A stretch of DNA of 64,000 nucleotides. It comes from Planctomycetota bacterium. Lineage in GTDB: Bacteria > Planctomycetota > Brocadiia > Brocadiales > Brocadiaceae. The number at the start of each line of letters is the position of its first letter. Positions within the stretch are counted from its first letter, which is position 1. The stretch is taken from NCBI GenBank assembly GCA_016873165.1, contig VGXV01000001.1:125643-189642 (forward strand). The letters are read 5' to 3'. The notes under the pieces were generated by a model. It searched no databases, was not told the origin of the DNA, and saw only the letters and a list, made by a program, of their open reading frames with translations. Both the position numbers and the translations under genes were made by a program. Below are positions 12,684 through 48,088 of the stretch, one piece after another.

Positions 12684-13054
12684 TTAGGCCTTCGGCAACT
12701 TTTAACGGAAGCATTCCCAATTTTTTGTAAATCAAAATAAAGCCGACCATAAAGGATCGGCGCTACCATGCAATATGTGTCGTAGCGCGGGTGGTTTATC
12801 CCCCGCATAATACCTCCACATTTTACAAAAAATCGGGAATGCTCCCCTTTTAACAGAGTAGGGTGGGCATCGCCCACCAAACGTAGAGACGCATTGCTAT
12901 GCGTCTCTACAAGCAACGTGAGACGGTGGGCAATGCCCACCCTACAACGATTGAAATTCCTTATCATTTAATAAGGCTTTCGGCTACTTTTAACAACGCG
13001 GTAGCAAGGCACGCCTTGCCACTACATGAACAGTTTGAAATTCCTTAACGTTAA
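12684..13054 (+). repeat. Two tandem modular intergenic repeats (family with constant ends)
   Basis: The first unit starts with TTAGGCCTTCGGCAACTTTT (from 12685) and ends with TTGAAATTCCTTA (12951-12963). The second starts with AAGGCTTTCGGCTACTTTTA (from 12972) and ends with TTGAAATTCCTTAACGTTAA (from 13034). The first carries the 114-bp repeat, then a GGTGGGC palindrome interrupted by a GAGACGCA palindrome. The second carries a short AAGGC/GCCTT palindrome. Related units with the same end sequences occur elsewhere in the window. The region between the TPR gene and glnN is otherwise empty. Confidence 0.8.
12710..12823 (-). repeat. 114-bp repeat, inverted identical copy at 45893-46006
   Basis: Base-by-base comparison shows no mismatch over 114 bp between this copy (reverse complement) and 45893-46006. 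It contains two hairpins, GCGGG...CCCGC and GCCGA...TCGGC, and ends in the recurrent motif ACAAAAAATTGGGAATGC. No coding role is apparent. Confidence 0.9.
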
Positions 13055-40644: not shown

Positions 40645-40817
40645 GGGAGCATTCACAAATTGTTGTAAAATTCCTTATAGAAATGTATGCTTCGACTTCG
40701 CTCAGCATGACCGTCTTTGTAACCCTGAGCGGAGCCGAAGGGCTATGTTTCTAAAGTATTGTCTTTAAGCCGATATCTCACAACGTTATTCTTTCGCTAC
40801 AATTTGTGAATGCTCCC
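40645..40817. repeat. Inverted-repeat-bounded element around a CTTCGACT palindrome
   Basis: GGGAGCATTCACAAATTGT at the left recurs as ACAATTTGTGAATGCTCCC at the right (19 bp perfect), enclosing 135 bp with the CGCTCAGCATGAC/CCTGAGCG palindrome. The structure is MITE-like, but no target duplication is evident. It fills the gap between the prenyl synthase gene and efp. Confidence 0.65.
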
Positions 40818-43847: not shown

Positions 43848-44186
43848 TTTAATTAGTCCTTCGGTAACTTTTATTTAATACAACTGTAGGGCGAGCCTGC
43901 CTGGCGATAGGCAGGGCTTTACCCTTGCCGGGAGCAGTCCCGGTTTCTTGTAACTTATCATTTATTATGCTTCGGCTCCGCTCAGCATGACGCTTAGAGT
44001 CACCCTGAGCGGAGTCGAAGGGTTGAGTTTCTCAGTGTGTTGAGGAGCTTTTCATATCAGAATATATGTTAATTGTTTTTTTTACAAGAAATCGGGAACG
44101 CTCCCGCCTTGCTTATCCTCTGTATGCGTTCACGGAATTGCAACCCTAAAGGATTGCCCTGCATGAACAGATTGAAATTCCTTAAC
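43848..44186 (+). repeat. Long modular intergenic repeat with several palindromes
   Basis: Starts TTTAATTAGTCCTTCGGTAA and ends TTGAAATTCCTTAACATAAA (from 44171). The interior contains CCTGCCTGGCGATAGGCAGG, CCGGGAGCAGTCCCGG, a CTCCGCTCAGCATGAC/CCTGAGCGGAG palindrome at 43975-44018, and ACAAGAAATCGGGAACGCTC. No gene is present in this 470-bp gap upstream of fabG's 3' end. Confidence 0.7.
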
Positions 44187-45783: not shown

Positions 45784-45892
45784 AAATTAGTCTTATTGAA
45801 TGTTGTCGCATATGCAAAAAAACATAAAGCAAATTTAAGTTAACGGCTCGTTCTGATCTCCGGTAGTTTAAGAAATTACGCTGAATAGTTAC

Positions 45893-46006
45893 AAATGTGG
45901 AGGTATTATGCGGGGGATAAACCACCCGCGCTACGACACATATTGCATGGTAGCGCCGATCCTTTATGGTCGGCTTTATTTTGATTTACAAAAAATTGGG
46001 AATGCT
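45893..46006 (+). repeat. 114-bp repeat, second copy
   Basis: Identical without mismatch to the reverse complement of 12710-12823. It fills part of the gap between the secreted-protein gene and the integron-type cassettes; the rest of that gap holds two 23-bp direct repeats and an attC site. Confidence 0.9.
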
Positions 46007-46046
46007 CCCGTAACAAATTGCCTTCTCTTATCAACAAGTTAATCAC

Positions 46047-46106: not shown

Positions 46107-46172
46107 ACCTAACGTTAAAACTCACAGGTGCGGCGGTTGTTTCGCCACATCCTGTGGAGTGATTTGTTATGC
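46107..46172 (-). other. attC-like integron recombination site at the end of the mazEF-type cassette
   Basis: Read on the minus strand: R'' GCATAAC, 5-nt spacer, L'' ACTCCACAGG, a central region whose GGCG and CGCC can pair, L' CCTGTGAGT, 6-nt spacer, R' GTTAGGT (a perfect GTTRRRY). L'' and L' are complementary except for one extra base, the usual extrahelical base. Total 66 bp. The toxin stop codon lies inside R'', as is common for integron cassettes. Confidence 0.8.
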
Positions 46173-46505
46173 CCCTATTATTTCATTTAGTCCTTCAATG
46201 ACTTGTTCTAATTCTTCCGTATCCGCTTTGGCAATCATTTTCCCTATTCTATCAACGGAAAGAGTCCTGATCTGACTTATTTTAACCCACGACCGTTTAG
46301 GCAAATCTGCTGTTTTCAATTCAAGAGTGAGCGGAAACCCTGCACGTTGAGGCTGACTGGTAATAGACACGGCAATAACAGTTCCCGATCGTTCATTAAA
46401 AATTTCGTGACTCAAAATCAAAACAGGCCGTAAGCCTGCCTGCTCACGACCCCGCACAGGGTTTAAATCTGCCCACCTGATATCACCCCTTAGTATTCGG
46501 GCCAT
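46167..46505 (-). CDS. MazF/PemK-family toxin (integron cassette gene)
   Basis: 112 residues. RGDIRWADLNPVRGREQAGLRPVLILS carries the MazF core: GDIxxADL, the Gly-x-Glu-Gln loop and RPxLxLS. IAVSITSQ and WVKISQIRTLSVDRIGKMIAK provide the conserved core strands and Ser/Thr. The family cuts mRNA at short motifs. The gene overlaps its antitoxin gene by 16 bases and its stop codon is part of an attC-like site. Confidence 0.92.
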   Translation of the reverse strand: MARILRGDIRWADLNPVRGREQAGLRPVLILSHEIFNERSGTVIAVSITSQPQRAGFPLTLELKTADLPKRSWVKISQIRTLSVDRIGKMIAKADTEELEQVIEGLNEIIGA

Positions 46506-46732
46506 TGGCTCAAATCCTCAGTTAAACCTTCCTCCGCCATTGCTTTTTCAAAGGGAATGTCGAGCTTGGCACATTCTTTAGCTAAACGAGTGCGTTTAAG
46601 ACGTTTCAGTTTTTCTTCTACCGCTTCCTGTATTGCCTGGCTGCGATTTTGAAAAACATGCTCACTAACGAGTCTATCTATGTCTTCGATAAATTGTTCG
46701 TCTAATGTAATGGCAATTTTTGTTTTTCTCAT
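46490..46732 (-). CDS. Ribbon-helix-helix antitoxin of the MazF-type toxin
   Basis: 80 residues. TKIAITLDEQFIEDIDRLVSEHVFQNRSQAIQEAVEEKLKRL is a ribbon-helix-helix DNA-binding domain; the acidic end (AMAEEGLTEDLSQWPEY) is the likely toxin-binding tail. GGAGGTAA precedes the ATG. The two genes form the only cargo of a cassette of about 684 bp running from the attC boundary near 46796 to the one near 46113. Confidence 0.9.
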   Translation of the reverse strand: MRKTKIAITLDEQFIEDIDRLVSEHVFQNRSQAIQEAVEEKLKRLKRTRLAKECAKLDIPFEKAMAEEGLTEDLSQWPEY

Positions 46733-47463: not shown

Positions 47464-48088
47464 TTTTTTTATTATTTATTTGGGTTGAACAATAATTATA
47501 CAGTCTGTATAAACCAACCGGCAACCCATCGACCGGGCTTCAGACACCGTGACCTCTTTTGCTCTAAACATGAGTATAGATCATCGTCATGCTTAGGAGA
47601 TGATAAAAGATTGCTTTTCTTTGAAATCAAGTATGGTATGGGAGCATTCCCGATTTTTTGCAACCGTTTATGGGATCGGTGTGGGTAGGGTGGATAAAGG
47701 CGCTGGTTTTTGCGCCGTATCCACCAACAATTATCGCATAAATGGTGGATTCGCTCCGCTTAATCCACCCTACAAGGCTCCGCTCAGCATGACATGCTTT
47801 TTTATAGATAACATTCACGGTCACCCTGAGCCCTTCGCTTATGTCATGCTGAGCGGAGTCGAAGCATCTTTTACCGCTCAGGATAAACTCCGTCGAAGGG
47901 CTGCGTTTTCCTGTAAATTGAAGATGTTTTCATATCCGGCATGATATACGGTAGTCGATTTTTCACAAAAAATCGGGAATGCCCCCGTATGGTATCTCCG
48001 GAATTCCCATAGAGACGCATAGCAATGCGTCTCTACGTTTGATGGGTAATGCCCACCCTGCTCTGTTAAAAGTTCCTGAAGTTCCAAT
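47464..48088. repeat. Composite of nested palindromic repeats, no gene
   Basis: About 625 bp. It begins with ATCGACCGGGCTTCAGAC near 47527, which resembles part of the neighbouring attC site. Then come GGGTAGGGTGGATAA...TTAATCCACCCTAC (about 47680-47773), CTCCGCTCAGCATGAC, CCCTGAGC and GTCATGCTGAGCGGAG palindromes (47766-47903), ACAAAAAATCGGGAATGC (from 47965), TAGAGACGCATAGCAATGCG (from 48012) and the left end of the modular repeat in reverse (CTGTTAAAAGTTCC, 48061-48074). No protein-like frame. Confidence 0.7.

What the first reader, a model, noticed from the sequence alone, without database searches (positions are those of the whole stretch)
12710..12823. 114-bp sequence present twice without mismatch, inverted, 33 kb apart
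12710-12823 and the reverse complement of 45893-46006 are identical at every base, although both lie in non-coding DNA that should drift. The sequence holds two hairpins and a terminal ACAAAAAATTGGGAATGC motif. Either the copies are very recent, they are homogenised by gene conversion, or the sequence is functional (for example a structured RNA).
Basis: seen in the sequence. Interest (0 to 1): 0.6.

Follow-up and report, generated by a model that had tools for sequence, protein, structure and literature searches.

The report
Recently multiplied miniature transposon (MITE) family
The 114-bp repeat is part of a 140-bp non-coding "hitch-hiker" transposon (a MITE) that has recently spread to about 30 places in this anammox bacterium's genome, so the perfect match reflects recent jumping rather than a conserved RNA; the mildly unusual part is that relatives with the same ends carry many different hairpin sequences inside.

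Summary
In detail: the two 114-bp blocks are identical. They are two of about 30 copies of one mobile element in this genome (a Kuenenia-type anammox bacterium). Copy 1 is a complete 140-bp MITE (12707-12846) with ~26-bp terminal inverted repeats (GGGAGCATTCCCAATTTTTTGTAAA) and a perfect 8-bp target-site duplication (CTTTTAAC). Copy 2 (46009-45893, minus) has lost its right end. Genome-wide, 26 full-length copies were found; 16 are identical to the consensus and 22 carry their own 8-9-bp duplication. The identity therefore reflects a recent transposition burst.

The "two hairpins" are a pair of GTAG-type REP palindromes nested inside the MITE. There is no Rfam match and no compensating change. 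The same terminal repeats occur across Brocadiaceae and in some other Brocadiales: 84 sampled insertions with duplications fall into 34 interior types, and most interiors hold strong hairpins (median fold z about -5, against -0.8 for flanking DNA). No autonomous transposase with these ends was found, so the driving enzyme (inferred DDE-type) is unknown.

Verdict: an ordinary MITE in kind, undescribed as far as I could search, with a mildly interesting pattern of shared ends and changing REP-like cores.

The parts
12707..12846 (+). MITE copy 1, complete, 140 bp, non-coding
   Evidence: 26-28 bp inverted repeats at both ends, 8-bp duplication, 98.6% identical to the family consensus
12699..12706 (+). 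left target-site duplication CTTTTAAC of copy 1
12847..12854 (+). right target-site duplication CTTTTAAC of copy 1
12707..12732 (+). left terminal inverted repeat (GGAAGCATTCCCAATTTTTTGTAAAT)
12821..12846 (-). right terminal inverted repeat (GGGAGCATTCCCGATTTTTTGTAAAA read on the minus strand)
12742..12766 (-). GTAG-type REP palindrome a (GCCGACCATAAAGGATCGGC + GCTAC tag)
   Evidence: free-standing relatives in L064, L065, L069
12782..12806 (+). GTAG-type REP palindrome b (GTAGCGCGGGTGGTTTATCCCCCGC), tail-to-tail with a
   Evidence: dozens of copies in other Brocadiaceae
45893..46009 (-). MITE copy 2, 117 bp, 100% identical to consensus positions 1-117, right terminal repeat missing
45984..46009 (-). 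left terminal inverted repeat of copy 2
47640..47986 (+). sibling MITE, 347 bp, same terminal repeats, different hairpin interior, 9-bp duplication GTATGGTAT
43930..44105 (+). sibling MITE, 176 bp, older (diverged ends, no clean duplication), interior palindrome around CTTCGGCTCCGCTCAG
40645..40817 (+). sibling MITE-like element, 173 bp, more diverged ends, no duplication

Best explanation
The repeat is a non-autonomous miniature inverted-repeat transposable element of 140 bp. Shown: ~26-bp terminal inverted repeats, no coding capacity, 8-9-bp target-site duplications, about 30 near-identical copies at unrelated sites, and absence of the full element from two congeneric genomes. Inferred: a transposase of DDE type, supplied in trans by a parent element that is lost or unassembled, recognises the terminal repeats and inserts the element at mostly A+T-rich sites with staggered 8-9-bp cuts. 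One master sequence multiplied recently, which is why two copies 33 kb apart are identical. The interior is a tail-to-tail pair of GTAG-type REP palindromes carried as passengers. Copy 2 later lost its right end where it abuts another dispersed repeat of about 46 bp.
For: About 30 copies, nearly all 93-99% identical to the query, in the own genome. 26 full-length copies, 16 identical to consensus, 22 with 8-9-bp target-site duplications that differ between copies; 15 of the 22 interrupt no open frame of 100 codons or more. Terminal repeats 89% complementary over 28 bp. The terminal-repeat pattern occurs 10 times in the window against 0.12 expected, and 167 times in the genome against 0 for the reversed control pattern. 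Matches in the two congeners G001 and G002 cover only the terminal repeat, and both flanking genes of copy 1 are present there without the element. 84 distinct insertions with duplications across related genomes share these ends.
Against: No transposase gene flanked by these terminal repeats was found. ISL3 and IS1595 searches of G000, G001, G002 and G056 gave no gene flanked by them. The IS1634-like gene between two such repeats in G001 is a nested insertion with its own ends. Sixty of the 71 smallest contigs of the own genome held no such pair. Unpaired repeats had no transposase beside them. IS256, ISKra4, ISLre2 and other families were not tested. Four of 26 full-length copies show no duplication (one lies at a contig end).
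Confidence: 0.94

Rival explanations
1. A structured non-coding RNA or cis-regulatory RNA under selection, kept identical because its fold matters.
For: Both strands fold far better than shuffled sequence (z -8.5 and -7.7). Both window copies lie between co-directional genes.
Against: The fold follows from terminal inverted repeats plus two REP palindromes. No Rfam family reached its threshold anywhere in the window. The 12 substitutions among copies contain no compensating pair. Copies occur at unrelated sites with target-site duplications and the full element is missing from both congeners. No transcription data were available.
Confidence: 0.03
2. A REPIN mobilised by a RAYT (Y1 tyrosine transposase), with the outer repeats only incidental.
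For: The interior is a pair of GTAG-type REPs with free-standing relatives in other Brocadiaceae. The genome has 13 Y1_Tnp matches, several about 330 aa long.
Against: The repeated unit ends exactly at the terminal inverted repeats, and 22 of 26 copies carry 8-9-bp target-site duplications, which Y1 transposases do not make (established knowledge). Elements with the same ends but without these REPs carry the same kind of duplication. In this genome the REP core is essentially confined to the MITE. The Y1 genes examined lack flanking REPs, except one with a MITE copy nearby.
Confidence: 0.03
3. Old repeats kept identical by gene conversion.
For: Near-identity of many dispersed copies fits conversion in principle.
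Against: Other, diverged elements with the same ends persist in the same genome without being homogenised. Target-site duplications are still mostly perfect, which points to recent insertion.
Confidence: 0.05

Closest known systems
Bacterial MITEs (e.g. Nezha of cyanobacteria, Correia/NEMIS, RUP, MITEAba12)
   Same: Short, non-coding, ~26-bp terminal inverted repeats, target-site duplications, many near-identical copies, mostly between genes.
   Different: No parent insertion sequence identified; the terminal-repeat sequence was not found in the paper library in a relevant context and appears nearly confined to Brocadiales.
GTAG-tagged REPs / REPINs (Di Nocera et al. 2013, PMC3733652; Bertels and Rainey 2011, PMC3116915)
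   Same: The interior is a pair of imperfect palindromes with GTAG tags facing each other (tail-to-tail dimer).
   Different: The dimer travels inside a terminal-inverted-repeat element with target-site duplications, not as an independent REPIN.
Anabaena variabilis GTAG-15 dimers inside long palindromes (PMC3733652, section 7)
   Same: A REP dimer nested within an inverted repeat, present in many copies.
   Different: There one REP family sits in one type of long palindrome, with no target-site duplications described in the passage read; here one terminal-repeat type carries at least 34 different interiors.

Membership tests
Bacterial MITE | short (about 70-600 bp) with no coding capacity | tested here: met
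   140 bp; longest open frame 46 codons
Bacterial MITE | terminal inverted repeats | tested here: met
   28-bp arms 89% complementary in copy 1
Bacterial MITE | target-site duplication of constant length | tested here: met
   22 of 26 full copies, 8-9 bp; 84 insertions in related genomes, 36 of 8 bp and 48 of 9 bp
Bacterial MITE | multiple dispersed copies | tested here: met
   about 30 copies on many contigs
Bacterial MITE | an autonomous insertion sequence with matching ends | tested here: inconclusive
   not found among ISL3, IS1595, small contigs or unpaired repeats; other families not tested
GTAG REP / REPIN (interior only) | imperfect palindrome with a GTAG tag, paired in inverted orientation | tested here: met
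   12742-12766 and 12782-12806
GTAG REP / REPIN (interior only) | association with a RAYT gene | tested here: inconclusive
   RAYT-length Y1 genes exist but have no flanking REPs, except one about 0.6 kb from a MITE copy
Structured RNA family | match to a known family or covariation | tested here: not met
   no Rfam match; no compensating changes among copies, though variation is low

The most novel reading that the evidence does not exclude
A single terminal-repeat type acts as a general vehicle in anammox bacteria: one trans-acting transposase moves many short elements whose cores are exchangeable hairpins (REPs and other palindromes), either because hairpin elements insert preferentially into the MITEs or because a hairpin core aids transposition or persistence.
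Probability: 0.3. Interest if true: 0.5.

Novelty: new member of a known kind. Interest (0 to 1): 0.3.

Why it matters
It removes a false lead (a conserved RNA) and shows that a transposon burst has recently reshaped intergenic DNA in a Kuenenia-type anammox genome. Such natural insertions could serve as strain markers in organisms that are hard to grow and manipulate. The pattern of shared ends with changing hairpins offers a concrete way to ask how REP palindromes spread within and between genomes.

Tried and rejected
Structured RNA: no Rfam match and no covariation. Parent transposase: ISL3 genes in G001 and IS1595 genes in G000 and G002 lack these ends; an IS1634-like gene lying between two such repeats in G001 is a nested insertion with its own ends; the C41 candidate has one such repeat upstream of a Y1 gene and no good partner; 60 of the 71 smallest own contigs held no pair; unpaired repeats lie next to ordinary genes. 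Horizontal transfer: a 99% copy in another genus (G021) lies on a contig that is 100% identical to the own genome over at least 13.6 kb and about 93% identical further out, so a binning error or a shared strain fragment is likelier than transfer; it is not used as evidence. A copy in G013 (90%) showed no match to the flanks of the own copies and stands. Viral contigs held no match to the terminal repeat. Literature searches for the terminal repeat and for MITEs in Kuenenia or anammox bacteria found nothing relevant. A possible gene disruption at L013 turned out to lie just upstream of the likely start codon.

Full report
Observation. The two 114-bp blocks (12710-12823 and the reverse complement of 45893-46006) are identical and the exact match stops at both ends. 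Extending the view outwards shows a second inverted repeat just right of the first block (12822-12849 against 12704-12731, 89% complementary), so the reported block is most of a larger element.

The element. Copy 1 is 140 bp (12707-12846) between CTTTTAAC and CTTTTAAC, an 8-bp target-site duplication. In the whole genome (4.05 Mb, 191 contigs) there are about 30 full or partial copies. Aligned in both orientations, 26 are full length, 16 of them are identical to the consensus, and 22 have target-site duplications of 8-9 bp, different from site to site. Copy 2 is identical to the consensus over positions 1-117 and then ends. Its right side adjoins a separate repeat of about 46 bp (45849-45892, minus) that is itself dispersed in dozens of copies in G001. 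The window pair is therefore not special; most copies in the genome would match each other equally well.

Where it comes from. Two congeners (G001 and G002; G002 positions match the Candidatus Kuenenia hertensis records) have the genes on both sides of copy 1 but not the element, and their matches to it are only the terminal repeat. The intergenic sequence there is too diverged to show an exact empty site. A 99% copy in G021 was set aside: the contig carrying it is identical to the own genome over at least 13.6 kb. A 90% copy, lacking the first 15 bases, lies in G013 with no match to the flanks of own copies.

Interior. Positions 36-60 and 76-100 are two GTAG-tagged palindromes facing each other across 15 bases. 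The second is found in dozens of copies in other Brocadiaceae, and the pair also occurs there without these terminal repeats (L064, L065). In the own genome the core occurs essentially only inside the MITE. REP dimers inside inverted repeats have a precedent in Anabaena variabilis (PMC3733652).

A wider family. The same ends occur across Brocadiaceae and in a few genomes of another family of the order (22 of 62 genomes of the order have exact pattern matches). In the DNA sampled, 84 distinct insertions have an 8- or 9-bp duplication with at most one mismatch. Their interiors fall into 34 clusters at 75% identity over 75% of length, and 29 of the 34 fold with z below -2. For 33 representatives the interiors have median z -5.0, against -0.8 for 63 flanking stretches of the same length (Mann-Whitney p 3e-11). 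Caveats: the flanks include coding DNA, the sample was gathered by searching for these ends in selected genomes, and some longer elements are nested mosaics (for example the 140-bp element inside a 346-bp one, L020). The claim that hairpin cores are exchangeable passengers is an inference.

Mechanism. Shown: ends, duplications, copy number, near-identity, non-coding nature. Inferred: movement by a DDE-type transposase acting in trans, because fixed-length duplications are typical of DDE enzymes and Y1 enzymes make none (established knowledge). Not shown: the transposase itself. The terminal repeats within one mismatch that were examined in the own genome belong to short elements or truncated ones, so an intact parent is probably absent from, or unassembled in, this genome.

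RNA reading. No Rfam family, no compensating changes among the 12 substitutions (low power because copies are so alike), unrelated insertion sites, and an obvious non-RNA source for the fold. If read through by transcription the element would still form a very stable hairpin (-60 to -68 kcal/mol) and could affect neighbouring messages; this was not tested.

Verdict. I found no earlier description of this family in the papers I could search.

Noticed in passing
45849-45892 (minus): A dispersed repeat of about 46 bp (GTAACTATTCAGCGTAATTTCTTAAACTACCGGAGATCAGAACG) borders truncated copy 2; it has at least 30 copies in both orientations in congener G001. Its nature is unknown.
   Followed up: partly
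12855-12950: Directly right of copy 1 lie further palindromes (GGTGGGCATCGCCCACC, GTAGAGACGCATTGCTATGCGTCTCTAC, GGTGGGCAATGCCCACC); the second recurs at 48009-48036.
   Followed up: partly
L066 1440-1600, also L067, L068, L072: Another MITE-like repeat with different ends (about AACAATTTAGCTTTTTGAAAAA) also holds the same GTAG-type REPs in other Brocadiaceae.
   Followed up: no
L297 (G021 contig 9) against L296 (own C9): A contig in a genome assigned to another genus is 100% identical to the own genome over at least 13.6 kb and about 93% further out: probable binning error, strain chimera or recombination tract.
   Followed up: partly
46167-46732 (minus): A PemK/MazF-type toxin gene with an upstream ribbon-helix-helix protein gene, a probable toxin-antitoxin pair, beside copy 2.
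   Followed up: no
L137 1568-3590: An IS1634-like insertion sequence (578-aa transposase) inserted beside or into a member of the same MITE superfamily in G001.
   Followed up: partly
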